Assembly: GCF_000497445.1 (NCBI RefSeq)
Contig: NZ_CM002285.1
Location: forward strand, 4,625,686 to 4,647,521
DNA from: Streptomyces roseochromogenus subsp. oscitans DS 12.976
GTDB lineage: Bacteria > Actinomycetota > Actinomycetes > Streptomycetales > Streptomycetaceae
Length of the DNA stretch: 21,836 nucleotides
Direction: 5' to 3'
Of this stretch, positions 1,660 to 14,496 are shown piece after piece; position 1 is the first letter of the stretch; each line of letters begins with the position of its first letter. The position numbers and the translations under genes are program-made. The notes below the pieces were generated by a model, which ran no database searches, had not been told where the DNA came from, and saw only the letters and a list, made by a program, of their open reading frames with translations.

Positions 1660-2663
1660 CAGCCCTCGGCCTCCCACTGCAGCCGGGCCACGGCGTCCAG
1701 GATGCGGTCGACGCCGGGCAGATGGTGCCGCTCCAGCATGGGCGGGGGGTAGGGGATGTCGAAGCCTGCCACACGCAGCACCGGCGCCTCCAGGTGGTGG
1801 AAGCAGCGCTCGGCGATGCGGGCCGCGATCTCGCCGCCCGGCCCGCCGAACCCGGTGGACTCGTGGACGACGACCGCGCGTCCGGTGCGCCGCACGGCCG
1901 CGCAGACCGTCTCGTCGTCGAACGGCACCAGCGAGCGCAGGTCGACCACCTCCAGGTCCCAGCCCTCGGCCCGCGCGGCCTCGGCGGCCTCCAGACAGAC
2001 CGGCAGGGAGGGGCCGTACGTGATGAGCGTGGCGCTGCGGCCCGGGCGCCGGACGACCGCCCGTCCGATGGGCTCGACCTGCGTCGGCTGCTCGGGGTTC
2101 CAGGTGTCCTTCGACCAGTACAGCCGCTTGGGCTCCAGGAAGACGACCGGGTCGTCGGAGGCGATGGCCTGGCGCAGCAGGCCATAGGCGTCGGCGACGG
2201 TCGCAGGTGTGACGACGTGCAGTCCCGGCGTGGCCAGGTAGTAGGCCTCGGAGGAGTCGCTGTGGTGCTCGACACCGCCGATGCCGCCGCCGTAGGGGAC
2301 GCGGACGGTGATCGGCAGGGGCATCCTGCCGCGGGTGCGGTTGCGCATCCGGGAGACATGGCTGATCAGCTGCTCGAACGCCGGGTAGGCGAAAGCGTCG
2401 AACTGCATCTCCACCACCGGTCGCAGGCCGTACATGGCCATGCCGACGGCGGTGCCGAGGATGCCGGCCTCGGCGAGCGGGGTGTCGGTGCAGCGGTCCT
2501 CGCCGAACTCCTTGGTGAGGCCGTCGGTGACCCGGAAGACACCTCCGAGGGTACCGACGTCCTCGCCCATGACGTGCACGGCAGGGTCATCGGCCATCGC
2601 GTCGCGCAACGCGCGCGTGAGGGCCTGCGCCATGGTGGCGGGCTTGACGGCGACGGTGGTCAT
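1659..2663 (-). CDS. bkdB: 2-oxoacid dehydrogenase E1 beta subunit (transketolase-like)
   Basis: This 334-aa protein is the beta subunit of the thiamine-diphosphate-dependent decarboxylase. Typical E1beta blocks are visible: VMGEDVG (31-37), TPLAEAGILG (61-70), RVPYGGGIGGVEHHSDSSEA (121-140) and the interface stretch ATPGLHVVTPATVADAY (144-160). The C-terminal transketolase-C domain contains HESTGFGGPGGEIAA. The length is normal for the family (about 325-340). It starts in an ATGA overlap with the E1alpha stop and ends in a TGATG overlap with E2, so the three subunits are translationally coupled. It forms the alpha2beta2 heterotetramer with the product of the preceding gene. As with the E2, the family is clear but the oxoacid preference cannot be read from sequence alone. 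Confidence 0.92.
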   Translation of the reverse strand: MTTVAVKPATMAQALTRALRDAMADDPAVHVMGEDVGTLGGVFRVTDGLTKEFGEDRCTDTPLAEAGILGTAVGMAMYGLRPVVEMQFDAFAYPAFEQLISHVSRMRNRTRGRMPLPITVRVPYGGGIGGVEHHSDSSEAYYLATPGLHVVTPATVADAYGLLRQAIASDDPVVFLEPKRLYWSKDTWNPEQPTQVEPIGRAVVRRPGRSATLITYGPSLPVCLEAAEAARAEGWDLEVVDLRSLVPFDDETVCAAVRRTGRAVVVHESTGFGGPGGEIAARIAERCFHHLEAPVLRVAGFDIPYPPPMLERHHLPGVDRILDAVARLQWEAEG

Positions 2664-3814
2664 CGGATGCCGCCTTCCGGCTCGCCGTGCTGCTCCTGCT
2701 CGGCTTCCAGCTCGGCCCTGAGCAGAGCGCGCTGCTCGCGCAGTTGGGCGGTGGTCTCGGCGTAGACGTGGTCGAAGAGGGCCATGGGGTCCAGTTCGGG
2801 GTCGCGGTTCATGCGGTCGCGCAGATCGGCGGCCATCTCCTCGGCGTCCTGCCGGGCGGCCTCTATCGCGGGCTGGTCGAGCAGCCCTCGCGCGGTCAGC
2901 TCCGCCTCCAGCAGCTCGATCGGGTCGTGGGCGCGCCAGGCCTCGACCTCGGCGTCTGCGCGGTAGCGGGTGGCGTCGTCGGCGTTGGTGTGGGCGTCCA
3001 TCCGGTATGTCACCGCTTCCACCAGGGTCGGGCCGCCGCCCGCGCGCGCGTGCCGTACGGCGTCGGCGAGGACCTCGTGCACGGCCGCCGCGTCGTTGCC
3101 GTCGACCAGCCGGCCCGGCATGCCGTACCCGACGGCCTTGTGGGCCAGGGAGGGCGCGGCGGTCTGCTTGGCGAGCGGGACGGAGATCGCGAAGCCGTTG
3201 TTCTGGACGAGGAAGACGACGGGCGCCTGCCAGACGGCGGCGAAGTTCAGCGCCTCGTGGAAGTCGCCCTCGCTGGTGCCGCCGTCGCCGACCAGGGCGA
3301 GCGCGACCACGTCGTCGCCCTTGAGGCGGGCGGCGTGCGCGAGGCCGACGGCGTGCGGCAGCTGGGTGGCCAGCGGGGTGGAGAGGGGAGCCACACGGTG
3401 GGTGCGGGGGTCGTAGCCGTTGTGCCAGTCGCCGCGCAGCAGGGTGAGCGCCTCGACGGGGTCGACGCCCCGGGCGACGACGGCGAGGGTGTCGCGGTAG
3501 CTGGGGAAGAGCCAGTCGCGTTCTTCCAGGGCCAGCGCGGCGGCGACCTCGCAGGCCTCCTGGCCGGTGCTGGAGGGGTAGACGGCGAGGCGGCCCTGTT
3601 TGGTGAGCGCGGTGGCCTGCGTGTTGTAGCGGCGGCCGCGCACCAGCTGGGCGTAGAGCCGGATCAGCAGGTCCGGGTCGGCCTTGGCGGCCGCCTCGGT
3701 GCCGAGGACGCGGTAGGGCTCGGCGTCGGGCAGCAGCGGCGCGGGGTCCATACGGGGCTGCCAGGCGGGCGGCGGGGATGGCCGGTACGCGCCCCGCTGC
3801 TCCATGACCGTCAT
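2660..3814 (-). CDS. bkdA: 2-oxoacid dehydrogenase E1 alpha subunit (thiamine-diphosphate binding)
   Basis: This 384-aa protein has the TPP motif GDG (176-178) ... NN (205-206), with 26 residues between. A phosphorylation-loop-like segment follows (YRMDAHTNADDATRYR, about 270-285). E1alpha and E1beta together decarboxylate a 2-oxoacid and reductively acylate the lipoyl arm of E2. The conserved PSSTGQEA block (80-87) and HRVAPLSTPLATQLPHA (about 139-155) match branched-chain E1alpha proteins. The start at 3814 has a GAGGAGG site 7 nt upstream; a second in-frame ATG lies at 3805. It is the first gene of the operon, and its promoter region is shared with the divergent Lrp/AsnC gene. That region carries a PaaR-like operator and a 36-bp inverted repeat. 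Branched-chain specificity is the default family call. A phenylpyruvate role is an inference from context. Confidence 0.9.
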   Translation of the reverse strand: MTVMEQRGAYRPSPPPAWQPRMDPAPLLPDAEPYRVLGTEAAAKADPDLLIRLYAQLVRGRRYNTQATALTKQGRLAVYPSSTGQEACEVAAALALEERDWLFPSYRDTLAVVARGVDPVEALTLLRGDWHNGYDPRTHRVAPLSTPLATQLPHAVGLAHAARLKGDDVVALALVGDGGTSEGDFHEALNFAAVWQAPVVFLVQNNGFAISVPLAKQTAAPSLAHKAVGYGMPGRLVDGNDAAAVHEVLADAVRHARAGGGPTLVEAVTYRMDAHTNADDATRYRADAEVEAWRAHDPIELLEAELTARGLLDQPAIEAARQDAEEMAADLRDRMNRDPELDPMALFDHVYAETTAQLREQRALLRAELEAEQEQHGEPEGGIR

Positions 3815-3874
3815 GACGGCACCTCCTCGTGGGAGCGGCTACGGGAGGCGCGTCGGCTGTGAAGCGCCTCACCA

Positions 3875-3888
3875 ACCGATTGTTCGGT
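3875..3888. promoter_or_regulatory. PaaR-like operator A (2-oxoacid dehydrogenase operon)
   Basis: The sequence is ACCGATTGTTCGGT, with 5-bp arms ACCGA/TCGGT around a 4-nt centre. On the minus strand it reads ACCGAACAATCGGT, one base from the operators at 6763 and 11817. It lies about 60 bp upstream of the E1alpha start, consistent with control of that operon. Its centre (TG instead of CG) deviates from ACCGNNCGNNCGGT, so affinity may be lower. Confidence 0.55.
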
Positions 3889-3915
3889 CGCCAGCACATT
3901 TTGGCTACAGGCCCC

Positions 3916-3951
3916 TCCAGGCTGTGGACAAACGGTTCTCCACAGCCTGGA
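3916..3951. promoter_or_regulatory. 36-bp inverted repeat between the E1alpha and Lrp/AsnC genes
   Basis: Perfect 13-bp arms (TCCAGGCTGTGGA / TCCACAGCCTGGA) flank a 10-nt spacer, roughly midway between the two divergent genes. Each arm contains a TTNTCCACAG-type motif reading inward from the spacer. Such a symmetric site next to a divergent Lrp/AsnC gene is a good candidate operator for that regulator. A transcribed hairpin or a DnaA-box pair are alternatives. Confidence 0.6.
3922..3945. promoter_or_regulatory. Inverted pair of TTNTCCACAG motifs (DnaA-box-like)
   Basis: TTGTCCACAG reads on the minus strand (3931-3922) and TTCTCCACAG on the plus strand (3936-3945). The first contains TTGTCCACA, the DnaA box preferred in Streptomyces. 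The same 10-mer recurs at 6730, 11740 and 11763. Confidence 0.5.
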
Positions 3952-3989
3952 ATGAATGCAGGACGTCCACGGCGAGGGAGCGGGGGGCA

Positions 3990-4490
3990 ATGGCAGCTGA
4001 ACAAATGGCCGACGGACCGCAGGACAGCGTCCCGCTGCCGCCGCCGCGTCCGCTGGACGCCATCGATCAGGACATCCTGAAGATCCTCCAGTCGGACGGC
4101 CGCGCCTCGATACGGTCCGTCGCCGAACGCGTCCATGTCTCGCGCGCCAACGCCTACGCGCGCATCAACCGGCTCGTCGAGGACGGCGTCATCCGTGGCT
4201 TCAGGGCGCGCGTGGACCACGAGCGGGCGGGGCACGGCACGTCGGCGTACGTCACTCTGAAGATCGTCCAGAACACCTGGCGCTCGGTCCGCGAGCAGCT
4301 CAGGCGGCTGCCCGGCGCCTCCCACATCGCCCTCGTGGGCGGCGACTTCGATGTGCTGCTGCTCGTGCACACGCCCGACAACAGGGCGCTGCGCGAGCTG
4401 GTGCTCACCCGGCTCCAGGCGATCCCCGAGGTGCTCAGCACCCGCACGCTGCTGGTGTTCGAGGAGGAGGACCTGGAGCCGGAGGCGTGA
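3990..4490 (+). CDS. Lrp/AsnC-family transcriptional regulator (BkdR-like)
   Basis: This 166-aa protein has an N-terminal winged helix-turn-helix (LDAIDQDILKILQSDGRASI at 22-41, recognition region VSRANAYARINRL at about 50-62). A C-terminal RAM ligand-sensing domain (about 86-156) carries the core GGDFDVLLLV (117-126). Lrp/AsnC proteins form octamers or dimers and usually bind an amino acid or a related metabolite. The ATG at 3990 follows a G-rich site (GGGAGCGGGG). The frame is open further upstream, but that part overlaps the promoter region. The gene is divergent from the E1alpha-E1beta-E2 operon, the usual arrangement of a BkdR-type activator that senses branched-chain or aromatic amino acids. 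The acidic tail EEEDLEPEA runs into the 23-bp repeat that follows. The effector is not predictable. Confidence 0.88.
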   Translation: MAAEQMADGPQDSVPLPPPRPLDAIDQDILKILQSDGRASIRSVAERVHVSRANAYARINRLVEDGVIRGFRARVDHERAGHGTSAYVTLKIVQNTWRSVREQLRRLPGASHIALVGGDFDVLLLVHTPDNRALRELVLTRLQAIPEVLSTRTLLVFEEEDLEPEA

Positions 4491-4605
4491 CGAAAAGCGT
4501 GCCCGAGGCGTGACCAAAAGCGAGCCGGAGGCGTGACCAAAGACGTGCCGGAGGCGTGACGAAAAGCGTGCCCGAGGCGTGACCGAAGGCGAGCCGGAGG
4601 CCTGA
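4491..4605 (+). repeat. 23-bp tandem repeat, five copies, between convergent genes
   Basis: Five consecutive 23-bp units (4491, 4514, 4537, 4560, 4583) each end in GAGGCGTGA, CGGAGGCGTGA or a close variant. Units 1 and 4 are identical; the others differ at a few bases. The last codons and stop of the Lrp/AsnC gene (EPEA-stop) are a partial copy of the unit, so the array seems to have grown from the gene's 3' end. It fills the whole gap up to the TetR gene. The unit length is not a multiple of three, so the array is not coding. There are no unique spacers, so it is not CRISPR. Confidence 0.85.
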
Positions 4606-4607
4606 GC

Positions 4608-5195
4608 TCAGCTTTGCTTGAGGCCCGCGAAGACCAGCCGGACCACCGCGTCGGCCACCTCGCGTTCGCCGGCGCCCCGCGGGTCCGGCCGGTACCACTC
4701 CACGATCGAGTTGATCATGCCGAAGACCAGCCGGGTGGCCAGGCGGACCTCGACGTCGCCGCGGACGTCCCCGTCGGCCGCCGCGGCCTTCAGCAGTTCC
4801 GCGACCCGGTGGTCGAAGTCGCGCCGCCGCTCCAGCGCCCACCGCTCGGTCGCGGTGTTGCCGCGCACCCGCAGCAGCAGCGTCACGTACGGCAGCTCGC
4901 CTATGAGCACCTCGACCATGCGCCGCACCACGTGCTCCAGCCGGTCCACGGCACGCCCCACGCACGCGTGCTCCTCGGCCAGGATGGCGAACAGGCCGTC
5001 CAGGGCGCGGCTGACGGCCCGGCGCAGGAGTTCCTCCTTGCCGCTGACGTGGTGGTAGATCGACGACTTGGAGATCCCGGCGGCCTTGGACAGGTGCTCC
5101 ATGGAGGTGCCGTCGTAGCCGCGCTCGTTGAAGACCTGGACGGCCACGGAGAGCAGTGTCTCGGGTGTGTACGTGTCGCGCTTGACCGTGGTCAT
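4608..5195 (-). CDS. paaR: TetR-family repressor, candidate PaaR
   Basis: This 195-aa protein has an N-terminal TetR DNA-binding domain: ETLLSVAVQVFNERGYDGTS (12-31), then the helix-turn-helix MEHLSKAAGISKSSIYHHV (32-50) and GKEELL. The helical ligand domain (about 75-190) has no clear relative by eye. The ATG at 5195 overlaps the paaH stop (ATGA), so enzyme and regulator are coupled. It is the only TetR gene among paa genes. The palindromes at 6763 and 11817 fit ACCGNNCGNNCGGT, the core I recall for C. glutamicum PaaR. Hence I infer that it represses the paa genes and is relieved by phenylacetyl-CoA, as for known PaaR proteins. The TetR family is certain; the PaaR assignment rests on context and the operators. 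Confidence 0.7.
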   Translation of the reverse strand: MTTVKRDTYTPETLLSVAVQVFNERGYDGTSMEHLSKAAGISKSSIYHHVSGKEELLRRAVSRALDGLFAILAEEHACVGRAVDRLEHVVRRMVEVLIGELPYVTLLLRVRGNTATERWALERRRDFDHRVAELLKAAAADGDVRGDVEVRLATRLVFGMINSIVEWYRPDPRGAGEREVADAVVRLVFAGLKQS

Positions 5196-6706
5196 GAGGT
5201 GCTCTCCCGCTTGTCGATGGCGTACGCGTGGCGGTAGAGCGCGAGGGAGGGCGCGTAGCGTCCGGAGGGGTCGCGCTCGTGCATCTCGTCCAGGACGTCG
5301 AAGGCGAACTCGCGACCGAGCCTGCGGTCCCACTCGAACGGGCCGAGCGGGTAGTTCACCCCGAGGCGCATGGCCGTGTCGATGTCCTCCTCGGTGGCGA
5401 CGCCCTTGGCGACGGCGTCATGGGCGAGGTCGATGATCCGGGCGACCGTGCGCGCGACGATCATGCCGGGGACGTCGCCGATGACGCTGACGTCCTTGCC
5501 GAGGGCCTGGAACAGGCCGATGGCCTCGGCGAGGGTCTTCGGCGAGGTGTCGTGGGAGGCGGACAGGGCGACGCGGGTGGCCGCGCGGTAGTCCAGGGCG
5601 AGGTCGAAGTAGACGACGTCCCGGAATTCCACGCAGGTCTGCCCGTCGGCGAGGACCAGTTGGCCGCCGCTCGGCAGCACCAGGCGGGTGCCGTTGTCCT
5701 CGTCCTCCTCGCGGACCGGGATGCCCGCCTCGCGGATCAGCGTGAGCAGCTCGGCCGCGGGGCCGAGGCCGCCCTCGGCGACGACGTAGGCGGGCGGCTG
5801 CTCCTTGTCGGCGGTGTGCGGTTCGGGCTTCTCGGCGCCCTCGGCGTGGTCGTACCAGCCGTGCCCCGTCTTGCGGCCGAGGCGGCCGGACTCCACCAGC
5901 CGGCGCTGGGCCAGGGACGGGGTGAAGCGCACGTCCTGGAAGAAGGACTGCCACACCGAGTGGGTGACGGACTCGTTGACGTCCTGCCCGATCAGGTCGG
6001 TCAGTTCGAAGGCGCCCATCCTGAAGCCGCCGGACTCGCGCAGGATCGCGTCGATGGTGGCCGGGTCGGCGGCCTGGGCCTCGTAGACCGCGAAGGCCTC
6101 GGCGTAGAACGGCCGGGCGATCCGGTTGACGATGAAACCCGGGGTGTCGGCGCAGGCCACCGGGGTCTTGCCCCAGGCGCGGGCGGTCTCGTACGCGCGC
6201 GTGGCCGATGTGACGTCGGTGGCGGACCCGGAGACGACCTCGACCAGCGGCAGCAGCGGGGCCGGGTTGAAGAAGTGCAGGCCCACGAAGCGGCCGGGGT
6301 GGCGCAGGGCACCGCCGATGGCCGTCACCGACAGCGAGGAGGTGTTGGTGGCGAGCAGGCAGTCCTCGGCGACGATCTCCTCCAGCTCGCCGAAGAGCTG
6401 CTGTTTGACGTCCAGCCGCTCCAGGACGGCCTCGACGACCAGTCCGCAGTCCGCCAGCTCGGCGAGGCTCTCCGCGGGCGCGAGGCGGGCGCGGGCCGCG
6501 TCCCGGTCGGCGCCGGTGATCCTGCCCTTCTCCGCGAGCCGGTCGAGGCGCGTGCCGATCGCCGCGGCCGCGTCCCGGGCCCGCCCGGCGACGGCGTCGT
6601 ACAGCCGCACGGGGTGGCCGGCGACCAGCGCGACCTGGGCGATGCCCTGGCCCATGGTGCCGGTGCCGACGACGGCCACGGGGCTGCTGAGGTCGAGTGC
6701 TGTCAT
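5192..6706 (-). CDS. paaH: 3-hydroxyacyl-CoA dehydrogenase, PaaH-type with two C-terminal domains
   Basis: This 504-aa protein performs the NAD-dependent oxidation of a 3-hydroxyacyl-CoA. In the phenylacetate pathway the substrate is 3-hydroxyadipyl-CoA, giving 3-oxoadipyl-CoA. The Rossmann motif GTGTMGQGIA is at 14-23. The catalytic set S123, H144 (HFFNPAP), E156 and N194 has exactly the spacing of the short-chain HAD enzymes. A first C-terminal domain (about 185-285) and a second (about 388-485, GMIVARTVARIIDLAHDAV) give the roughly 500-aa PaaH architecture rather than the 285-aa Hbd form. The ATG at 6706 has a GGGAGGA site 8 nt upstream. It is divergent from paaN across a PaaR-like operator and coupled to the TetR gene. 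3-Hydroxybutyryl-CoA is an alternative substrate. Confidence 0.85.
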   Translation of the reverse strand: MTALDLSSPVAVVGTGTMGQGIAQVALVAGHPVRLYDAVAGRARDAAAAIGTRLDRLAEKGRITGADRDAARARLAPAESLAELADCGLVVEAVLERLDVKQQLFGELEEIVAEDCLLATNTSSLSVTAIGGALRHPGRFVGLHFFNPAPLLPLVEVVSGSATDVTSATRAYETARAWGKTPVACADTPGFIVNRIARPFYAEAFAVYEAQAADPATIDAILRESGGFRMGAFELTDLIGQDVNESVTHSVWQSFFQDVRFTPSLAQRRLVESGRLGRKTGHGWYDHAEGAEKPEPHTADKEQPPAYVVAEGGLGPAAELLTLIREAGIPVREEDEDNGTRLVLPSGGQLVLADGQTCVEFRDVVYFDLALDYRAATRVALSASHDTSPKTLAEAIGLFQALGKDVSVIGDVPGMIVARTVARIIDLAHDAVAKGVATEEDIDTAMRLGVNYPLGPFEWDRRLGREFAFDVLDEMHERDPSGRYAPSLALYRHAYAIDKRESTS

Positions 6707-6729
6707 GTGCGCGATCCTCCCGCACGACG

Positions 6730-6739
6730 TTTTCCACAG
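6730..6739 (+). promoter_or_regulatory. TTNTCCACAG motif in the paaH/paaN intergenic region
   Basis: TTTTCCACAG lies 23 bp from the PaaR-like operator, on the paaH side. It is one of five copies of this 10-mer, all found in intergenic regions that also contain a PaaR-like operator. Confidence 0.45.
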
Positions 6740-6754
6740 ATGCGGCGGACCCCC

Positions 6755-6782
6755 TTGTCCCGACCGATCGTTCGGTTACTCT
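6755..6782 (+). promoter_or_regulatory. Candidate paaN promoter
   Basis: TTGTCC (6755-6760) and TACTCT (6777-6782), 16 bp apart, resemble -35 and TANNNT -10 boxes. The operator at 6763-6776 occupies the spacer. On the opposite strand the overlapping TAGAGT (6783-6778) could serve as the paaH -10, though I see no -35 for it. This layout predicts that one bound repressor would block both directions. Confidence 0.45.
6763..6776. promoter_or_regulatory. PaaR-like operator B (paaH/paaN)
   Basis: ACCGATCGTTCGGT is the exact reverse complement of the site at 11817-11830. The identity extends to 17 bp (ACCGAACGATCGGTCGG on the minus strand). It fits ACCGNNCGNNCGGT and lies in the middle of the divergent promoter region of paaH-tetR and paaN. 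Confidence 0.75.
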
Positions 6783-6877
6783 AGCTCTGACTGCCCGCCC
6801 GCCGCCCACCACCGCCCTGACCGAGGCGCTTCGCGCCACACTTTTTATTCAACCGCGCCACTTTCTTCCCAGGTTGT

Positions 6878-6895
6878 GAACTCGACGACGAGTTC
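6878..6895. promoter_or_regulatory. Inverted repeat in the paaN leader
   Basis: GAACTCG-ACGA-CGAGTTC has perfect 7-bp arms and a 4-nt loop. It lies 7 nt upstream of the GAGGAG ribosome site (6903-6908). In RNA it would form a hairpin just ahead of the ribosome site. It could instead be a second operator. Confidence 0.5.
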
Positions 6896-6918
6896 TCCAG
6901 ATGAGGAGTTGGTCCCGC

Positions 6919-8613
6919 ATGGCCGCCGAACTGACCGCCCACGCTCTGATCGCGAAGCACCGGCCCACCCTGGACCAGGCACTGGAAGCGATCCGCACGC
7001 GCGCGTACTGGTCGCCGCATCCCGAGCATCCGAAGGCCTACGGCGAGAACGGCAGCCTGGACGCGGCGACGGGCAAGGCCGCCTTCGACGCCCTGCTGGG
7101 CAACCGCCTCGACCTCGCCGACCAGCCCGGCATCGACGACTGGGTGGGCGACGAGGTCTCCCCGTACGGCATCGAGCTGGGCGTGACCTACCCGCACGCG
7201 GACATCGACGTGCTGCTGCCCGCGATGAAGGCCGGACAGCGCGCCTGGCGGGAGGCCGGCGCAGAGCTGCGGGCCATGGTCTGCCTGGAGATCCTCAAGC
7301 GGATCAGCGACCGCACCCACCAGTTCGCGCACGCGGTCATGCACACCAGCGGGCAGGCGTTCATGATGGCGTTCCAGGCGGGCGGCCCGCACGCCCAGGA
7401 CCGCGGCCTGGAGGCGGTGGCGTACGCGTACGCGGAGCAGGTCCGCACGCCCGAGACGGCCGAGTGGACCAAGCCGCAGGGCAAGCGCGACCCGCTGGCC
7501 CTCACCAAGCGGTTCACGCCGGTCCCGCGCGGCCTCGCCCTGGTCATCGGCTGCAACACCTTCCCGACGTGGAACGGCTATCCGGGCCTGTTCGCCTCCC
7601 TGGCGACCGGCAACGCGGTCCTGGTCAAGCCGCACCCGCGCGCGGTTCTGCCGCTCGCCCTCACTGTGCAGATCGCGCGCCAGGTGCTCGCCGAGACGGG
7701 CTTCGACCCGAACCTGGTGGCGCTGGCCGCCGAGCGCCCCGGCGAGGGCATCGCCAAGACCCTCGCGACCCGCCCCGAGATCCGGATCATCGACTACACA
7801 GGGTCGACGATCTTCGGCGACTGGCTGGAGGCCAACGCCCGCCAGGCGCAGGTCTACACCGAGAAGGCCGGCGTCAACACGGTGATCGTGCACTCCACGG
7901 ACACCTACAAGGGCATGCTGTCGAACCTGGCGTTCTCGCTGTCCCTGTACAGCGGCCAGATGTGCACCACCCCGCAGAACCTGCTCATCCCGCGCGACGG
8001 CATCCGTACCGACGAGGGCCCCAAGACCTTCGACGAGGTCGCCGCCGACCTCGCCCGCGCGGTCGACGGTCTCCTCGGCGACGACGCGCGCGCGAACGCC
8101 CTGCTGGGCGCGATCGTCAACCCGGACGTCAAGGCCCGTCTGGAAGCCGCCGCCGGCCTCGGGGAAATCGCCCTCGCCTCACGGGAGATCAGCAACCCCG
8201 AGTTCCCGGACGCGGTGGTGCGCACCCCGGTCATCGTCAAGCTGGACGGCGCCAAGCCGGACGACCAGGCCGCCTACATGAGCGAGTGCTTCGGCCCCGT
8301 CTCCTTCGCCGTCGCCGTCGACTCGGCCGCCGACGCGGTGGAGCTGCTGCGCCGCACGGTCCGCGAGAAGGGCGCGATGACGGTCGGCGCCTACACCACC
8401 GACCCCGAGGTCGAGCGGGCGATCGAGGAGGTGTGCCTGGAGGAGGCGGCCCAGCTGTCGCTCAACCTGACCGGCGGGGTGTATGTGAACCAGACTGCCG
8501 CCTTCTCCGACTTCCACGGCTCGGGCGGCAACCCGGCGGCGAACGCGGCCCTCACCGACGGCGCGTTCGTGGCCAACCGCTTCAGGGTGGTGGAGGTCCG
8601 CCGGGAGGCGTAG
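6919..8613 (+). CDS. paaN: PaaN, ALDH-type phenylacetic acid degradation protein
   Basis: This 564-aa aldehyde dehydrogenase belongs to the PaaN branch that lacks the C-terminal MaoC-like hydratase domain of PaaZ. Visible ALDH features are CNTFPTWNG with oxyanion N213, substrate-loop K237, TGSTIFG (294-300, NAD site), the general-base-like E315 in YTEKAGVN, and nucleophile C349 in SGQMCTTPQN. The expected reaction is oxidation of the semialdehyde made when the ring is opened; the hydrolase step would need a separate enoyl-CoA hydratase, which is not in this window. I chose the ATG at 6919 because a GAGGAG site lies 10 nt upstream, and because the alternative ATG at 6901 would put that site inside the gene. 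The gene stands alone on the plus strand, divergent from paaH. The exact reaction of this PaaN type is less well established than that of PaaZ. Confidence 0.88.
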   Translation: MAAELTAHALIAKHRPTLDQALEAIRTRAYWSPHPEHPKAYGENGSLDAATGKAAFDALLGNRLDLADQPGIDDWVGDEVSPYGIELGVTYPHADIDVLLPAMKAGQRAWREAGAELRAMVCLEILKRISDRTHQFAHAVMHTSGQAFMMAFQAGGPHAQDRGLEAVAYAYAEQVRTPETAEWTKPQGKRDPLALTKRFTPVPRGLALVIGCNTFPTWNGYPGLFASLATGNAVLVKPHPRAVLPLALTVQIARQVLAETGFDPNLVALAAERPGEGIAKTLATRPEIRIIDYTGSTIFGDWLEANARQAQVYTEKAGVNTVIVHSTDTYKGMLSNLAFSLSLYSGQMCTTPQNLLIPRDGIRTDEGPKTFDEVAADLARAVDGLLGDDARANALLGAIVNPDVKARLEAAAGLGEIALASREISNPEFPDAVVRTPVIVKLDGAKPDDQAAYMSECFGPVSFAVAVDSAADAVELLRRTVREKGAMTVGAYTTDPEVERAIEEVCLEEAAQLSLNLTGGVYVNQTAAFSDFHGSGGNPAANAALTDGAFVANRFRVVEVRREA

Positions 8614-8620
8614 CGACTGC

Positions 8621-9370
8621 TCAGGAGGGTGCGCCCCCTGTAGCACTCCAGTGGTACAGCGTCATCGCCACGCTGGTGGCGAGGTTGTAGCTGGAGACCT
8701 GGGGGCGCATCGGCAGGGCCAGCAGATGGTCGGCACGCGCGCGCAGCTCGGCCGACAGCCCGCTGCGCTCCGAGCCGAACGCCAGGACGGCGGCGTCGGG
8801 CAGCTTGGTGCCGCGGATGTCCTCGCCCTCCGGGTCGAGGGCGAACAGCGGCCCGGCGGGCAGCTCGTCGACGCCGAGGCGTTCCACGGCGGTCGCGAAG
8901 TGCAGGCCGGCGCCGCCGCGCACCACCGTGGGATGCCAGGGGTCGAGCGTGCCGGTGGTGACCACGCCGGTCGCCCCGAAGCCGGCGGCCAGCCGGATCA
9001 CGGCGCCGGCGTTGCCCAGGTTGCGGGGGTTGTCCAGGACCACGACGGGCGCGCTGCGCGGGGTGCGTGCGAGCGTGCGCAGGTTGGCCTCGCGCGAGGG
9101 CCGTACGGCGAGCGCGGCCACACCGGTCGGGTGCGGCCGCGGCACGAGCGAGGCGTACGTCTCCGCGGACACCTGCGTGAGCAGCGCGTCCAGCGCGTCC
9201 CGTACGTCACCGGCGAGTTCCTCGGCGAGGGCGAGCGCGGCCGCCCGGTCGGTGGTGACCGCCACCGGGATCTCGGCCCCGAAGCGCAGCGCGTGCTTGA
9301 GGGCGTGGAAGCCGTCGAGCAGCACGGCGTCATCGGCGTGCGCGCGCCAGCGGGTCAGCGGGTCGGTCAT
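8621..9370 (-). CDS. TrmH/SpoU-family RNA 2'-O-methyltransferase
   Basis: This 249-aa SPOUT-class (trefoil-knot) methyltransferase uses S-adenosylmethionine to methylate a ribose 2'-OH in rRNA or tRNA. All three SpoU motifs are present: DNPRNLGNAGAVIRLA (113-128; N114, N120, R126), FGSERSGLS (198-206) and SYNLATSVAMTLYHW (227-241). The N-terminal 90 residues form the usual substrate-binding extension. The start at 9370 follows an AGG about 9 nt upstream; a GTG at 9379 is possible. It lies 10 nt after the HTTM gene, so it is probably the last gene of a DUF5819-HTTM-methyltransferase operon. It converges on paaN with only 7 nt between stops. The RNA target is not predictable, and it has no evident link with phenylacetate. 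Confidence 0.88.
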   Translation of the reverse strand: MTDPLTRWRAHADDAVLLDGFHALKHALRFGAEIPVAVTTDRAAALALAEELAGDVRDALDALLTQVSAETYASLVPRPHPTGVAALAVRPSREANLRTLARTPRSAPVVVLDNPRNLGNAGAVIRLAAGFGATGVVTTGTLDPWHPTVVRGGAGLHFATAVERLGVDELPAGPLFALDPEGEDIRGTKLPDAAVLAFGSERSGLSAELRARADHLLALPMRPQVSSYNLATSVAMTLYHWSATGGAPS

Positions 9371-9380
9371 GCCGTGCACC

Positions 9381-10580
9381 CTACGCGGCCCCCTGCGGGC
9401 TCCCCTCCGGCGAGCGCGGCGCGGGCACCGCGGGGTCACTGCGCCGGACCGTCCGCTCGCGCGCGCGTGCCACCAGCGCGCCCAGCCGGCGCAGGAACGG
9501 CGTCGGCAGGAAGACCGCGTCCGCAGTGATCATGGCCAGCGAGAAGAACGGCAGCCCGAGCACGACCGCGATCACCGAGTGCTCGATCATCAGCAGCACC
9601 AGCAGGACGTTCTTGACCCGCCGGTTGAACAGGGTGAACGGGAAGGCGACCTGCACCGCGACCGTCCCGTAGGCCACGATCGTCATGATCGTGCCGCTGG
9701 CGGACATCAGATCCGCGAGTCCGGGCCAGGGCGAGAAGTAGTCCAGGTGGAGCGGGTAGTAGACGGCGGTGCCGTCCTGCCAGCGCGAGCCCTGGATCTT
9801 GTACCAGCCGGCCGTCGCATAGATCAGGCAGGCCTCCGCCATGATCACCAGCAGGGCGCCGTTGTGGAGGATGTTGGTGATGACGTCCAGCAGGATCCGC
9901 GGCTCCGGCGACTTCGCCCAGCGGCCGACGGCCCACCACAGGCCGAGTACCACCCAGGCGGTCCACAGCAGCGCGGGGATCAGCCAGCCGTTGTCGAACC
10001 GGCCGGTGAACGTGGCTATCGCGAGCGCGAGTCCGAACACCGCCCACAGGGCCGGTCCCACCCGGTCGGCGGGAACCCGCTCCCCACGCGCGCGTGCCGC
10101 CCCGGTGCGCGCCGCCCGCCGCGCGTCCAGCGACCACACCTGTCCGCACCGTGTGAACACGAGGTAGAAGGACATCAGGTGCAGCACGTTGTCGCCGCCG
10201 TCGCCCACGAAGACGCTGCGGTTCTGCAGTGACAGCACCCCCAGCATGAACAGCACGGACGCGGTCCGGGTGCGCCAGCCGAGCAGCAGCGCGGCACTGG
10301 CGGCGATCGCCAGCAGGTAGAAGCACTCGAACCACACCTGTCCGTCGGACCACAGCAGAGCCGTGAACGCGTGGTTGTCGGCGGTCAGCTCCTTGGCGAG
10401 GTTCCAGCCCCACGGTCCGGCCGGACCGTACAGCTCCTGGCGGTGAGGGAACTCACGCAGCAGGAACAGCAGCCAGGTCCCGGCGAACCCGATGCGGATC
10501 ACGGCGCTCTGATACGGCCCGAGAGCCGCGCCGGTGGCCCGGGCGATACCGCACGAGAGGATCAGGGAGAGCCTGTTCAC
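9381..10580 (-). CDS. HTTM-domain membrane protein (vitamin K carboxylase-like fold)
   Basis: This 399-aa protein has about eight to ten hydrophobic segments (roughly 27-42, 84-100, 106-120, 132-143, 175-192, 200-217, 236-258, 295-316, 322-340, 343-358). The block AGWYKIQGSRWQDGTAVYYP (257-276) is the HTTM signature. Its lysine (K261) is in the region that holds the catalytic lysine of vitamin K-dependent gamma-carboxylase. The Arg/Pro-rich C-terminus is probably cytoplasmic. The GTG start at 10580 overlaps the DUF5819 stop (GTGA) and has a GGGAGGT site 5 nt upstream; an earlier in-frame ATG at 10619 would lie inside DUF5819. The bacterial function is unknown. Its pairing with a DUF5819 protein suggests a two-protein membrane complex. 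Confidence 0.85.
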   Translation of the reverse strand: MNRLSLILSCGIARATGAALGPYQSAVIRIGFAGTWLLFLLREFPHRQELYGPAGPWGWNLAKELTADNHAFTALLWSDGQVWFECFYLLAIAASAALLLGWRTRTASVLFMLGVLSLQNRSVFVGDGGDNVLHLMSFYLVFTRCGQVWSLDARRAARTGAARARGERVPADRVGPALWAVFGLALAIATFTGRFDNGWLIPALLWTAWVVLGLWWAVGRWAKSPEPRILLDVITNILHNGALLVIMAEACLIYATAGWYKIQGSRWQDGTAVYYPLHLDYFSPWPGLADLMSASGTIMTIVAYGTVAVQVAFPFTLFNRRVKNVLLVLLMIEHSVIAVVLGLPFFSLAMITADAVFLPTPFLRRLGALVARARERTVRRSDPAVPAPRSPEGSPQGAA

Positions 10581-11518
10581 CGCACACCTCCCGCTGCCTC
10601 GCCGGCCGTCACGGTCCACCAGGGCAGCACGCGGTAGACGGGCTTGTCGGGCACGCGCTCACGGCTCCACTCGGGCGGCTGCACATTGGTGGTGCTGGAA
10701 CGGATCTGCACGCGCTGGATGACGCCCTCCTGGTCGGCCGGATAGGTCCGGTACAGCCGCATCACCACGATCCGGCGCAGGTACTGCTCGGACAGGGAGC
10801 CGCGCATGCCCAGGGAGCGGTTGTCGGTGCTGTGCGTGGCGGTGAAGAAGTCCCAGGCACGTCGCAGCTCGTTCTGCTGCGTGTGGCTCGGCACCAGGTT
10901 GCCGTCGATCGCGGCACCGTCCTGGGCGGAGAGGTCGGTCCACCCGGTGGTGCGCAGTCCGCCGTCCTTCGCGCGCACCACGGCACGCACCTGCACGGCG
11001 ATGTTCTGCTGCAGCGGGTTCGGCGCGAACAGCTTCCAGTTCTGCTCGAACTCCGGGTACACCCATTCCTCGACGGCCTTGCCGTGCTGCTTGGTCACCG
11101 TGTTCGCGGGGGCGAGGCTGAGGAACACCATCAGCAGATGCACACAGGCGGCGACGCCGACCACCGCGAGCGCCAGCGCCGCGACGACCTGGTAGCGGGG
11201 GGAGAGGGCGGCCACGCCGGTACGGGGCACGCCGGGCGGCCGCGGGGCGCCGGGCTCGGGCGACGGCACAGGGATGGTCAGGGCAGTCGGGGTGGCGGGC
11301 CCGGCCGTCGGCTTCGACCGGGGTGCGCGGTCCGCGCTGCCGAAATCCCCGCCGCCGGAATCCCCGACGCCGTCATCCGCGCCGCCGGAATCCGCACCGC
11401 CCGCGGCCGCCGCATCCGTCAGGGAGTCCACGCGGGCCGGGGGAGTCTCCGGGAGACGCGTCCCGGCCGACCCGTCGGGGCCGGGCCGGGCCCCCGAGTC
11501 CTCGTCGTACGCGTCCAT
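10577..11518 (-). CDS. DUF5819-family membrane-anchored protein
   Basis: This 313-aa protein begins with a disordered segment (1-105) rich in Gly/Asp/Ala/Pro. One transmembrane helix follows (about 110-136, [20 protein letters not shown]). The rest is an extracytoplasmic domain beginning with [15 protein letters not shown] (154-168), a block typical of proteins paired with HTTM partners. No catalytic motif is recognisable. I chose the ATG at 11518, which has a weak GGGGCGGA site; the frame stays open upstream into the paaA promoter region. It is first in an operon with the HTTM gene (GTGA overlap) and the TrmH-like gene. It is divergent from paaA across 353 bp. The family call is by pattern recognition and the function is unknown. 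Confidence 0.75.
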
Positions 11519-11621
11519 TCCGCCCCGTCCCCCGTTTCGGCTCGGTCGTTCGGCTGGGTGTCCAGCTCGGTGCTGCGGCGCCACCACGAGCGCCCCATGA
11601 TTCACGCACGCCACTCCTCGG

Positions 11622-11635
11622 CGTTCCACGGAACG
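11622..11635. promoter_or_regulatory. 14-bp inverted repeat upstream of the DUF5819 gene
   Basis: CGTTCC-AC-GGAACG has perfect 6-bp arms and lies about 100 bp upstream of the DUF5819 start, in the 353-bp gap facing paaA. It could be an operator for the minus-strand operon. No other copy was noticed. Confidence 0.35.
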
Positions 11636-11739
11636 GTACTCAGCCCCGGCCACCGGGCGCAGCCCCGGGGGCGGGCGAGGGCCGTGGTCCTCGCCACGCG
11701 GTACGGCGCCGGCACCGGGCGCGCCCGCCCTCCCGCACG

Positions 11740-11772
11740 TTGTCCACAGGCTGCCGCCGGAGTTTTCCACAG
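11740..11772 (+). promoter_or_regulatory. Two TTNTCCACAG motifs upstream of the paaA promoter
   Basis: TTGTCCACAG (11740-11749) and TTTTCCACAG (11763-11772) are direct repeats 23 bp apart, about two helical turns. They sit just upstream of the candidate -35 box. The first contains a perfect streptomycete DnaA box. This position suits an activator or a second regulator of the paa operon. Confidence 0.5.
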
Positions 11773-11775
11773 CGG

Positions 11776-11804
11776 TTGACACCCCACGGCGCCCGGCACA
11801 CCAT
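11776..11804 (+). promoter_or_regulatory. Candidate paaABCDE promoter
   Basis: A consensus-quality TTGACA (11776-11781) is followed after 17 bp by CACCAT (11799-11804), a weak match to TANNNT. The predicted start is near 11811, directly before the operator at 11817. That arrangement suits repression by blocking initiation. Confidence 0.45.
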
Positions 11805-11816
11805 TGATGCGCACGG

Positions 11817-11830
11817 ACCGAACGATCGGT
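11817..11830. promoter_or_regulatory. PaaR-like operator C (paaABCDE)
   Basis: ACCGAACGATCGGT is identical to operator B on the opposite strand and fits ACCGNNCGNNCGGT. It lies 41 bp upstream of the paaA start and directly downstream of the candidate promoter. Confidence 0.78.
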
Positions 11831-11871
11831 CGGTACAGATTCACCCAAGAGCCCGAGGTCAGGGGGACCGC

Positions 11872-12905
<1,034 letters not shown>

Positions 12906-12909
<4 letters not shown>

Positions 12910-13193
12910 GCACCACCGACTGGCCCCTGTGGGAGGTCTTCGTGCGCTCCCGGCGCGGCCTCTCCCACACCCACGCCGGCAGCCTGCACGCCCCCGACGC
13001 GGAGCTGGCCCTGCGCAACGCACGCGACCTGTACACGCGCCGCGGCGAGGGCGTGTCGATCTGGGTCGTCCCGGCCGCCGCGATCACCGCGTCCTCGCCG
13101 GACGAGAAGGACCCGTTCTTCGAACCGGCCGCCGACAAGCCCTACCGGCACCCGACCTTCTACGAGATCCCGGAAGGGGTGAAGCACCTGTGA
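12906..13193 (+). CDS. paaB: Phenylacetyl-CoA epoxidase subunit PaaB
   Basis: This 95-aa protein is a small structural subunit of the PaaABCE complex, thought to bridge the PaaAC units. It is recognised by [20 protein letters not shown] (6-25), the [19 protein letters not shown] block and the C-terminal [11 protein letters not shown]. The start overlaps the paaA stop (ATGA) with a GGAG upstream, and the stop overlaps paaC (GTGA). The length equals that of well-known PaaB proteins. It has no catalytic residues of its own. Confidence 0.95.
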
Positions 13194-13921
13194 CCGCCAC
13201 CGGCCCCGCCACCGTCCCGGTGACCGCCGCGCTCGCCCTCGGCGACGACGCCCTGGTGCTCTCCCACCGGCTGGGGGAGTGGGCCGGGCACGCCCCCGTC
13301 CTCGAGGAGGAGGTCGCTCTCGCCAACATCGCCCTCGACCTGCTCGGCCAGGCCCGCATCCTGCTGTCGATGGCCGGTGACGAGGACGAACTGGCCTACC
13401 TGCGCGAGGAGCGGGCCTTCCGCAACCTCCAGCTGGTCGAGCAGCCGAACGGCGACTTCGCCCACACGATCGCCCGCCAGCTGTACTTCTCCACCTACCA
13501 ACAGCTGCTCTACGCCGAACTGGCAGCCGGCGACGGCCCCTTCGCGCCCCTCGCCGCGAAGGCGGTCAAGGAGGTCGCCTACCACCGCGACCACGCCGAG
13601 CAGTGGACCCGCCGCCTCGGCGACGGCACGGAGACCAGCCACGAACGGATGCGCCACGCCTGCGCGGCCCTGTGGAAGTTCACCGGTGAGATGTTCCAGC
13701 CGATCGAGGGCCTGGAGACCGACTGGACCGGCCTGGACCAGCGCTGGCAGGAGTCCGTCGCAGACGTCCTCAGCCGTGCCACGCTGCCCCTCCCCGAGGG
13801 TCCGCGCACCGGCGCCTGGTCGGCCGGCGCCGGCCGACAGGGCCTGCACACCGAACCGTTCGGGCGGATGCTCGCCGAGATGCAGCATCTGCACCGCAGC
13901 CACCCGGGGGCGTCATGGTGA
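13190..13921 (+). CDS. paaC: Phenylacetyl-CoA epoxidase structural subunit PaaC
   Basis: This 243-aa protein is a ferritin-like paralogue of PaaA that pairs with it and supports the active site. Recognisable blocks are LGDDALVLSHRLGEWAGHAP (17-36), EEEVALANIALDLLGQARIL (39-58), ANGDFAHTIARQLYFSTYQ-like NGDFAHTIARQLYFSTYQ (87-104) and KEVAYHRDHAEQW (127-139). The start is the GTG at 13190, which overlaps the paaB stop (GTGA) behind a GGAAGGGG site; the upstream in-frame extension would overlap most of paaB. The 3' end overlaps paaD by 7 nt. The length is typical for the family. Confidence 0.93.
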   Translation: MTATGPATVPVTAALALGDDALVLSHRLGEWAGHAPVLEEEVALANIALDLLGQARILLSMAGDEDELAYLREERAFRNLQLVEQPNGDFAHTIARQLYFSTYQQLLYAELAAGDGPFAPLAAKAVKEVAYHRDHAEQWTRRLGDGTETSHERMRHACAALWKFTGEMFQPIEGLETDWTGLDQRWQESVADVLSRATLPLPEGPRTGAWSAGAGRQGLHTEPFGRMLAEMQHLHRSHPGASW

Positions 13922-14496
13922 CCGCCACCGCCCTGGAGGCGGAGCTGCTGGAGCTGGCCGGCTCGGTGCCCGACCCCGAACTGCCGGTGCTCACACTCCA
14001 GGAGCTGGGCGTGGTGCGCGCGGTGCACGTCCACGGCGGGGACGCGGTCGAGGTCGACCTGACCCCCACCTACACCGGCTGCCCCGCCATCGAGGCGATG
14101 AGCGTGGACATCGAACGGGTGCTGCGCGCCCACGGCATGCGTGAGGTCACGGTCCGCACGGTGCTCACCCCCGCCTGGACGACCGACGACATCAGCACCG
14201 AAGGGCGGCGCAAACTCCAGGAGTTCGGCATCGCTCCCCCACGGGTGCGCGAGGCCTCCGGCCCGGTCGCACTGGCTCTCGGCCCGACCCGAACCGAACA
14301 CGAACCCCCCGCACGCACCAAGGCCACCTCGCCCACCGCACCGATCGCATCCACCGCGCCCACCGATCCCATCCGCTGCCCGCACTGCGGCTCCGCCGAC
14401 ACCGAGTTGCTGAGCAGGTTCTCGTCCACCGCGTGCAAGGCGCTGCGCCGCTGCCTCGCCTGCCGTGAACCGTTCGACCACTTCAAGGAGTTGTGA
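13915..14496 (+). CDS. paaD: PaaD, MIP18-like Fe-S assembly protein of the epoxidase
   Basis: This 193-aa protein has an N-terminal DUF59/MIP18 domain (about 5-100) with VPDPELPVL (18-26) and C56 in the TGCPAIEAM block. A C-terminal zinc ribbon has C155, C158, C174, C180 and C183 and ends REPFDHFKEL. Between them is an unusual Thr/Pro/Ala linker (about 124-152). PaaD is needed for epoxidase activity and is thought to help mature an iron centre, probably the Fe-S cluster of PaaE. Start: ATG at 13915 (7-nt overlap with paaC) or GTG at 13918 (GTGA overlap); both are plausible. The stop overlaps paaE as TGATG. Confidence 0.92.
   Translation: MVTATALEAELLELAGSVPDPELPVLTLQELGVVRAVHVHGGDAVEVDLTPTYTGCPAIEAMSVDIERVLRAHGMREVTVRTVLTPAWTTDDISTEGRRKLQEFGIAPPRVREASGPVALALGPTRTEHEPPARTKATSPTAPIASTAPTDPIRCPHCGSADTELLSRFSSTACKALRRCLACREPFDHFKEL

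What the first reader, a model, noticed from the sequence alone, without database searches (positions are those of the whole stretch)
3875..11830. One TetR operator shared by paaA, paaH/paaN and a 2-oxoacid dehydrogenase operon
Seen: ACCGAACGATCGGT at 11817-11830 and its exact reverse complement at 6763-6776, with identity over 17 bp. A one-mismatch copy lies at 3888-3875. Known, from memory: C. glutamicum PaaR binds a motif with core ACCGNNCGNNCGGT, which both exact sites fit. Inference: the TetR at 4608-5195 is PaaR, and its regulon here includes the dehydrogenase operon as well as the paa genes.
Basis: partly seen in the sequence, partly recalled or inferred. Interest (0 to 1): 0.72.

Follow-up and report, generated by a model that had tools for sequence, protein, structure and literature searches.

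The report
Likely PaaR control of bkd operon
In Streptomyces and close relatives, the DNA switch that controls breakdown of phenylacetic acid also sits, unchanged in the genomes examined that have a close copy of the regulator, in front of genes usually said to break down branched-chain amino acids, which suggests that those genes feed the phenylacetic acid pathway.

Summary
The third site is not a decayed copy: ACCGAACAATCGGT stands upstream of E1-alpha in 78 of 78 readable genus loci, and in that gap in 140 of 140 family genomes with a PaaR of 70% identity or more. Ten family genomes lack a close PaaR; only four of them have the gene, and 0 of 4 have the site. Outside the family, 0 of 10 orthologous upstream stretches have it. 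In two of four PaaR-less genomes the dehydrogenase genes lie beside or inside the paa cluster. Published transcriptomes show bkd, paa and paaK rising together. So PaaR (ortholog of SCO3833, PDB 2iai) very probably represses this operon, released by phenylacetyl-CoA. The likely logic, inferred, is that the complex makes phenylacetyl-CoA from phenylpyruvate. PaaR control of paaABCDE in Streptomyces is known; for the bkd link I found only a published synteny hint. No binding or enzyme assay was possible.

The parts
3875..3888 (-). PaaR operator of the 2-oxoacid dehydrogenase operon, ACCGAACAATCGGT in gene sense
   Evidence: exact in 78 of 78 readable genus loci (window included); GG at 3873-3872 also invariant, 3874 is A in 74 of 78 and T here
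6763..6776 (-). PaaR operator shared by the divergent paaH and paaN genes, ACCGAACGATCGGT in paaH sense
   Evidence: exact in 75 of 78 loci with paaN, other variants in 3
11817..11830 (+). PaaR operator upstream of paaA, ACCGAACGATCGGT
   Evidence: exact in 60 of 60 loci with paaA in the fetched stretch; 19 loci had no paaA in the stretch
4608..5195 (-). paaR, TetR-family regulator, ortholog of S. coelicolor SCO3833
   Evidence: PDB 2iai, 2.1e-97; ATGA overlap with paaH
5192..6706 (-). paaH-like 3-hydroxyacyl-CoA dehydrogenase
   Evidence: NF006124 above cut-off; TIGR02279 PaaH 582 bits, below its cut-off 669
6901..8613 (+). paaN
   Evidence: TIGR02288, 994 bits, cut-off 579
11872..12909 (+). 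paaA, phenylacetyl-CoA epoxidase subunit, first gene of paaABCDE
   Evidence: TIGR02156, 527 bits, cut-off 280
12906..15560 (+). paaB (12906-13193), paaC, paaD (13915-14496), paaE (14493-15560)
   Evidence: for paaC, paaD and paaE (paaE 414 bits, just below its cut-off 421); paaB by position and length only
2660..3814 (-). E1-alpha of a 2-oxoacid dehydrogenase (bkdA2 type, ortholog of SCO3831 by position)
   Evidence: TIGR03181, 429 bits, cut-off 411
1659..2639 (-). E1-beta of the same complex (bkdB2 type)
   Evidence: NF006667, 267 bits, below cut-off 321
157..1677 (-). E2 acyltransferase of the same complex (bkdC2 type)
   Evidence: Pfam PF00198, PF00364, PF02817 above cut-offs
3990..4490 (+). 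bkdR, Lrp/AsnC-family regulator, divergent from E1-alpha
   Evidence: Lrp-type models, all below equivalog cut-offs; divergent from E1-alpha in the 78 fetched genus loci
3902..3930 (-). conserved promoter-like stretch of the dehydrogenase operon, TTGTCC - 17 - TAGCCA, ending 13 bp upstream of the operator
   Evidence: conservation, read by eye; the consensus scan found no sigma-70 promoter here

Best explanation
PaaR is a TetR-type repressor whose regulon in this family is paaABCDE, paaH-paaR, paaN, paaK and the 2-oxoacid dehydrogenase operon bkdA2B2C2. Without phenylacetyl-CoA a PaaR dimer sits on ACCGA-N4-TCGGT at each promoter; at the bkd operon the site lies between a conserved promoter-like stretch and the start codon, where it would block initiation or early elongation. 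Phenylacetyl-CoA releases it (inferred from PaaR of Thermus and Burkholderia). The likely reason for including the dehydrogenase is that the complex oxidises phenylpyruvate to phenylacetyl-CoA, so its own product opens both the supply route (bkd, paaK) and the consuming route (paaABCDE, paaH, paaN). Shown here: sites, specificity, conservation, co-loss, neighbourhood. Inferred: binding, effector, direction, substrate. Likelihood: PaaR directly controls the bkd operon 0.9; repression released by phenylacetyl-CoA 0.85; physiological substrate phenylpyruvate or another aryl-2-oxoacid 0.5.
For: Genome-wide specificity: the 4 hits with at most 1 mismatch are paaA, paaH|paaN, bkdA2, paaK. bkd site exact in 78 of 78 readable genus loci and in 17 of 20 loci from other genera of the family. 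Family co-occurrence: 140 of 140 with a PaaR of 70% identity or more; of the 10 others only 4 have a listed E1-alpha, and 0 of 4 have the site. G233, whose E1-alpha falls in the operator-bearing clade (support 0.78; subclade 0.90), lacks PaaR, paaA and the site. The site keeps its distance to E1-alpha (median 63 bp, sd 29) more than to bkdR (median 105, sd 45). In PaaR-less G253, bkd genes run in one direction with paaN, paaH, paaA, paaK; in PaaR-less G037 paaA follows them in the same direction. Published expression: S. rimosus HP126, E1-alpha/E2/E1-beta 5.0/4.7/4.6 with paaE/D/C 4.1/3.5/3.3 and phenylacetate-CoA ligase 3.1 (PMC10612213, passages); SCUT-3 on feather, paaK/paaABCDE and bkdABC up together (PMC7181669, passage). 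A PDH-like pair PglB/C is proposed to turn phenylpyruvate into phenylacetyl-CoA in S. pristinaespiralis (PMC7089894, passages). In S. roseosporus bkdA1B1C1 is called critical and bkdA2B2C2 unnecessary for the branched starter (PMC9240718 citing Luo 2018, passage).
Against: No binding, expression or enzyme experiment was run. G243 has a divergent PaaR (61%) and one-mismatch operators at paaN and paaA but none at its bkd genes; its E1-alpha groups outside the operator-bearing clade. Class-level relatives have PaaR and an E1-alpha ortholog without the site (0 of 10). The family counts are not phylogenetically independent, and only one clear independent loss (G233) was found. Five family genomes carry further E1-alpha copies (six copies, 62-68% identity) without an exact site of their own. 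The E1-alpha passes a pyruvate-dehydrogenase-named model, and its best solved chains are PDH (208 bits) and 2-oxoisovalerate dehydrogenase (181 bits), so the substrate is not readable from sequence. Papers call the operon branched-chain and controlled by BkdR; MtrA is predicted there too (PMC12323332). Transcriptome co-variation is correlative, and those strains or media changed much else.
Confidence: 0.85

Rival explanations
1. The operator belongs to PaaR, but it controls the divergent bkdR (Lrp) gene rather than the dehydrogenase operon, so that bkd genes respond only indirectly.
For: The site lies in a shared divergent gap.
Against: When the gap grows, the site stays near E1-alpha more than near bkdR (sd 29 versus 45 bp). 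The conserved promoter-like stretch facing E1-alpha ends 13 bp before it. In all 78 readable loci the asymmetric 14-mer has the same orientation relative to E1-alpha, as at paaA and paaH.
Confidence: 0.1
2. PaaR control of the dehydrogenase serves branched-chain or general acyl-CoA supply: phenylacetyl-CoA signals amino-acid excess and opens a real branched-chain 2-oxoacid dehydrogenase.
For: Published naming and BCAA-linked work on bkdR and bkdA2B2C2. SCUT-3 grows on protein and up-regulates both.
Against: bkdA2B2C2 reported unnecessary for branched starter supply in S. roseosporus (second-hand). bkd genes lie beside or inside paa clusters in G037 and G253. A second E1-alpha of 41% identity, about 16 kb away, has no such operator (at most one mismatch) in this genome.
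Confidence: 0.35
3. The site upstream of the dehydrogenase is a promoter or BkdR element conserved for another reason that happens to resemble the PaaR operator.
For: Much of the gap is conserved, including a promoter-like stretch and a 16-bp inverted repeat at 3916-3951.
Against: Presence follows PaaR, not bkdR: G233 and G259 keep bkdR and E1-alpha but lack PaaR (at 1e-45) and the site. In this genome the same outer sequence, at most one mismatch, otherwise occurs only at paa genes.
Confidence: 0.04
4. Chance similarity.
For: None beyond the modest length of the motif.
Against: 3 of 3 ACCGANNNNTCGGT matches in the window are these sites with 0.00 expected; exact conservation in 78 of 78 readable loci.
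Confidence: 0.001

Closest known systems
PaaR of Streptomyces pristinaespiralis (SSDG_03033; Zhao et al. 2015, not held, seen only through passages of PMC10933834 and PMC7089894)
   Same: TetR regulator in Streptomyces repressing paa genes; putative site AACGA-N4-TCGGT, which the paaA site here contains exactly (AACGATCGGTCGGT) and the paaH|paaN site with one mismatch.
   Different: The passages seen report no control of paaK or of a 2-oxoacid dehydrogenase operon.
PaaR of Corynebacterium glutamicum (Chen et al. 2012, recalled; paper not held)
   Same: TetR repressor of paa genes (passages of PMC9493321, PMC13186573); core ACCGNNCGNNCGGT, recalled, fits the CG-centred sites.
   Different: The bkd site and most paaK sites read here break the central CG; no dehydrogenase target that I know of.
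PaaR of Thermus thermophilus (TTHA0973) and Burkholderia cenocepacia
   Same: TetR repressors released by phenylacetyl-CoA; sites CNAACGNNCGTTNG and ACCGACCGGTCGGTT (PMC9493321 passages); T. thermophilus targets include a phenylacetyl-CoA ligase (PMC6651687 passages).
   Different: The targets in the passages seen are paa operons (with a hypothetical gene and a pseudogene); no 2-oxoacid dehydrogenase complex among them.
BkdR-controlled bkdA2B2C2 of S. coelicolor (SCO3832, SCO3831-3829)
   Same: Same operon and divergent Lrp gene (PMC13033682, PMC8176718 and PMC12323332 passages).
   Different: Control named there is BkdR, with predicted MtrA sites; PaaR input is not mentioned in the passages seen.
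PccD of Saccharopolyspora erythraea
   Same: TetR regulator said to control a BCDH operon directly (PMC8176718 passage).
   Different: Different motif (T/ATGACGG/CTGT/CTGT/A) and linked to propionyl-CoA, not paa.

Membership tests
PaaR (TetR-type repressor of phenylacetate catabolism) | TetR-family protein, close ortholog of a Streptomyces PaaR | tested here: met
   2iai (SCO3833) 2.1e-97, and 3vpr (named only TetR family; that it is T. thermophilus PaaR is recalled) 4.5e-20. TetR-type models only, all below cut-off; no PaaR model among the hits. The S. pristinaespiralis protein itself was not compared.
PaaR (TetR-type repressor of phenylacetate catabolism) | gene linked to paa genes | tested here: met
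   overlaps paaH, 6.7 kb from paaA. Genus loci: paaN in the locus in 78 of 79, paaH in 62 of 79.
PaaR (TetR-type repressor of phenylacetate catabolism) | operators upstream of paa genes, specific genome-wide | tested here: met
   threshold at most one mismatch in the own genome.
PaaR (TetR-type repressor of phenylacetate catabolism) | direct binding and repression | not testable with these tools
   Needs EMSA, footprint, deletion mutant.
PaaR (TetR-type repressor of phenylacetate catabolism) | phenylacetyl-CoA as effector | not testable with these tools
   Known for Thermus and Burkholderia PaaR (PMC9493321 passages).
PaaR regulon member: bkdA2B2C2 operon | operator conserved upstream of orthologs wherever the regulator is present | tested here: met
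   78 of 78 readable in genus; 140 of 140 in family for PaaR at 70% identity or more. Not met for the divergent PaaR of G243 (61%), nor outside the family (0 of 10); G225 (56%) has no listed E1-alpha.
PaaR regulon member: bkdA2B2C2 operon | operator lost when the regulator is lost | tested here: met
   G233: E1-alpha in the operator-bearing clade and bkdR kept; PaaR, paaA and site not found. One independent case; G037, G253 and G259 agree, but their E1-alpha is of another lineage.
Branched-chain 2-oxoacid dehydrogenase | E1-alpha, E1-beta and E2 of the 2-oxoacid dehydrogenase superfamily | tested here: met
Branched-chain 2-oxoacid dehydrogenase | preference for branched-chain 2-oxoacids | not testable with these tools
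   Sequence does not separate PDH from BCKDH; enzyme assay needed.

The most novel reading that the evidence does not exclude
bkdA2B2C2 of this family, annotated as a second branched-chain 2-oxoacid dehydrogenase, is physiologically a phenylpyruvate (aryl-2-oxoacid) dehydrogenase of the PAA catabolon. PaaR ties it in through a fixed CA-centred operator, so that phenylacetyl-CoA, its product, induces both its making and its breakdown. CG-centred operators on the consuming genes versus CA/TG-centred ones on the producing genes (bkd, most paaK read) would give the two arms different thresholds.
Probability: 0.45. Interest if true: 0.7.

Novelty: new variant of a known kind. Interest (0 to 1): 0.55.

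Why it matters
It adds a phenylacetyl-CoA input to an operon studied for two decades as branched-chain catabolism and polyketide precursor supply, and offers a reason why Streptomyces keeps two such complexes. It makes the substrate of the second complex a testable question. It also matters for engineering: deleting paaR, or feeding phenylacetate, should change this operon, which bears on pristinamycin I, phenylglycine and other products made from phenylacetyl-CoA or short acyl-CoA.

Tried and rejected
Considered and set aside: chance; a degenerate third copy (the same ACCGAACAATCGGT in 78 of 78 readable loci); control of bkdR only; an ancient link (0 of 10 class-level upstream stretches). A strict rule that paaK always has a TG centre was rejected: of 19 paaK upstream stretches read, 14 have TG, 4 have CG (L136, L141, L145, L146) and 1 has no site (L140); the reverse also occurs, TG at the paaN gap in 2 of 78 genus loci plus one two-mismatch TG form and often in other genera. 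The thought that two dimers use overlapping registers at every site was dropped for bkd: the base after the 14-mer there is A in 74 of 78 loci. Paralogous regulators L091 and L092 were left out of the genus tally; L092 has ACCGAACATTCGGT at its own paaN. Other recurrent one-mismatch hits were only sampled: ACCGAGCGATCGGT lies downstream of a UvrD-like gene in the two loci checked. The exact hits in G228 and G253 and the second hits in G210 and G237 lie away from bkd genes and are treated as stray; about 0.016 exact chance hits per 10 Mb genome is my own base-composition estimate. The prior-art claim rests on paper searches in an open-licence library only; Zhao 2015, Chen 2012 and Luo 2018 were not held. 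PMC13118837 (passage) already notes PaaN synteny with bkd genes as potential functional or regulatory linkage.
Full report
What is there. The window lies in a 9.78 Mb genome, Streptomyces by inference. In order it carries the E2, E1-beta and E1-alpha genes of a 2-oxoacid dehydrogenase (157-3814, minus strand), a divergent Lrp-type gene (3990-4490), a TetR gene (4608-5195, minus), a paaH-like gene (5192-6706, minus), paaN (6901-8613, plus), three other genes, and paaABCDE (11872-15560, plus). By position next to bkdR the dehydrogenase is the bkdA2B2C2 type (SCO3831-3829 in S. coelicolor; PMC13033682, passages); this naming rests on position. paaR starts inside the last codons of paaH (ATGA overlap), so it is probably autoregulated through the paaH site. 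In 17 of 79 genus loci the operator stands directly upstream of paaR itself.

The sites. All three are ACCGA-N4-TCGGT; that pattern has exactly three matches in the window and none in 100 shuffles. Genome-wide there are four places with at most one mismatch: the three sites and one at C1:8704003. The fourth is directly upstream, on the same strand, of a 443-aa gene that passes the PaaK model TIGR02155 (706 bits, cut-off 646).

Conservation in the genus. 81 genomes were drawn. PaaR was found in 80 at 1e-20; G037 has none and G001, a 79% complete assembly, only a 34% hit. I fetched the other 78 loci and read them with the window (79 loci). Upstream of E1-alpha the sequence is ACCGAACAATCGGT in 78 of 78; the 79th (L090) reads N there. 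paaA: ACCGAACGATCGGT in 60 of 60 (in 19 loci paaA was not in the fetched stretch). paaN: the same in 75 of 78, ACCGAATGATCGGT in 2, ACCGAATGGTCGGT in 1. In the bkdA2-bkdR gap all 14 columns are invariant in the 78 loci; the next base is A in 74 of 78 (T here and in three others), followed by an invariant GG. Other parts of the gap, a promoter-like stretch among them, are also well conserved. Of 30 loci read for exact ACCGAATGATCGGT, 29 are upstream of paaK in gene sense and one is the paaR|paaN gap of G050; 59 of 81 genomes have that 14-mer. Of 19 further paaK upstream stretches (0.8-1.5 kb; 17 genomes without the exact form plus G047 and G012), 18 have a sense-strand site with at most two mismatches to one of the three forms, 14 with a TG centre and 4 with CG; one (L140) has none, and some sites lie up to about 0.6 kb from the gene.

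Family. 150 genomes were drawn, 38 of the same genus. PaaR of 70% identity or more is in 140, a divergent PaaR (56%, 61%) in 2, none at 1e-45 in 8. Exact ACCGAACAATCGGT is in 142. In 137 it lies within 500 bp upstream of the listed E1-alpha on the same strand. In G288, G292 and G246 it is also in the bkdR-E1-alpha gap; in G246 E1-alpha is only partly recovered and the site is about 0.6 kb from its extrapolated start. The remaining two (G228, G253) are elsewhere in genomes without PaaR. So 140 of 140 with a close PaaR have the bkd site. Of the 10 others, 6 (G225, G228, G238, G241, G251, G255) have no E1-alpha at 1e-110 (only 12 candidates a genome were scored), so the fair count is 0 of 4 (G233, G243, G253, G259). 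Six further E1-alpha copies in five genomes (G200, G252, G303, G310, G321) have no exact site of their own. These counts are not phylogenetically independent. The clearest independent event is G233: E1-alpha in the operator-bearing clade (support 0.78; its subclade 0.90), bkdR kept, but no PaaR, no paaA and no site. Of 20 loci fetched from other genera of the family, 17 have the exact site; the exceptions are two loci of genus g85 and G233.

Class. 148 genomes were drawn; PaaR at 1e-35 is in 42, of which 31 are outside the genus. I searched 30 of these 31 for E1-alpha; 9 have a copy of 58-69% identity. Their 10 upstream stretches show no site with at most two mismatches within 500 bp; one two-mismatch hit lies 1.3 kb away. 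The link therefore looks like an invention within this family.

Gene neighbourhood as independent evidence. In G253, without PaaR, E1-alpha, E1-beta and E2 run in one direction with paaN, paaH, paaA and paaK within about 14 kb. In G037, without PaaR, paaA follows E2 after about 0.9 kb in the same direction. Of the other two PaaR-less genomes with the gene, G233 has no paaA, and G259 has paaA on another contig of a fragmented assembly. The E1-alpha proteins of G037, G243, G253 and G259 (61-65% identical) form a clade of their own (0.97) that branches with those of other families (0.97), not with the operator-bearing clade. A complex kept with paa genes by operator in one lineage and by neighbourhood in another suggests a metabolic tie.

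Expression in print. S. rimosus HP126: E1-alpha, E2, E1-beta +5.0, +4.7, +4.6; paaE, D, C +4.1, +3.5, +3.3; phenylacetate-CoA ligase +3.1; in the column for strain HP126 delta-v3 the same seven read -2.9, -2.7, -2.7, -1.4, -1.0, 0, -1.3 (PMC10612213, Table 2, passages; taken as log2, reference of the second column not seen). The locus tags leave nine genes between paaC and E1-alpha, as in this window (paaB, paaA, three other genes, paaN, paaH, paaR, bkdR); that match is my arithmetic. On feather medium SCUT-3 raised paaK, paaABCDE, paaI, paaJ and bkdABC (PMC7181669, passage); which bkd cluster is not stated there. In S. coelicolor overexpressing lon, bkdA2B2C2 rose up to 20.6-fold; the word search of that paper found no paa or phenylacet term (PMC13033682). 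A 2026 synteny study noted PaaN lying with bkd genes and suggested possible functional or regulatory linkage (PMC13118837, passage). The passages I saw of the 2026 PAA-pathway survey (PMC13186573) and of RegPrecise 3.0 (PMC3840689) do not mention a bkd link.

How it most likely works. PaaR represses; phenylacetyl-CoA releases it (known for Thermus and Burkholderia PaaR, PMC9493321 passages). The bkd operator lies 13 bp beyond a conserved promoter-like stretch (TTGTCC-17-TAGCCA, by eye), and the paaN operator lies between TTGTCC and TACTCT (by eye); the consensus scan of 3700-7000 calls neither a promoter. The step from regulation to substrate is inference. PglB/C shows that a PDH-like enzyme is proposed to make phenylacetyl-CoA from phenylpyruvate in Streptomyces (PMC7089894), and bkdA2B2C2 is reported unnecessary for branched starter supply in S. 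roseosporus (PMC9240718 citing Luo 2018).

Against. A divergent PaaR (G243) has paaN and paaA sites but none at bkd. Sequence alone does not separate PDH from BCKDH. BkdR, and by prediction MtrA, also act on this operon, so PaaR would be one of several inputs. No experiment was run.

Noticed in passing
window 3916-3951: 16-bp inverted repeat TCCAGGCTGTGGACAA / TTCTCCACAGCCTGGA with a 4-nt spacer in the bkdA2-bkdR gap, overlapping the promoter-like stretch and largely conserved; candidate BkdR site.
   Followed up: partly
window 4478-4605: Tandem repeat of 23 bp, 5.6 copies, from the last codons of bkdR into the gap before the convergent paaR.
   Followed up: no
L207-L210: ACCGAGCGATCGGT recurs in several genus genomes; in the two loci checked (L208, L209) it lies downstream of a UvrD-like helicase gene, possibly the operator of another regulator.
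   Followed up: partly
L203 (G228:C3:16200-19200): One exact ACCGAACAATCGGT plus four near copies (ACCGAAC[AG]ATCCGT) within about 1.1 kb in a genome lacking PaaR; the first two lie in a 561-aa open frame, which looks like a coding repeat.
   Followed up: no
window 9436-11539: Two conserved genes (one DUF5819, one without Pfam or NCBIfam hit) lie between paaN and paaA in most genus loci; function unknown.
   Followed up: no
L092 (G033) and L091 (G011): Second PaaR-like genes (about 60% identity) elsewhere in two genus genomes; the G033 copy lies near a second paaN preceded by ACCGAACATTCGGT.
   Followed up: partly
window 6759-6776 and 11817-11834: The paaH|paaN and paaA operators extend into a second palindrome shifted by 4 bp (AACGATCGGTCGGT at paaA, one mismatch at paaH), as if two dimers could bind overlapping registers; the bkd site does not keep it.
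   Followed up: partly
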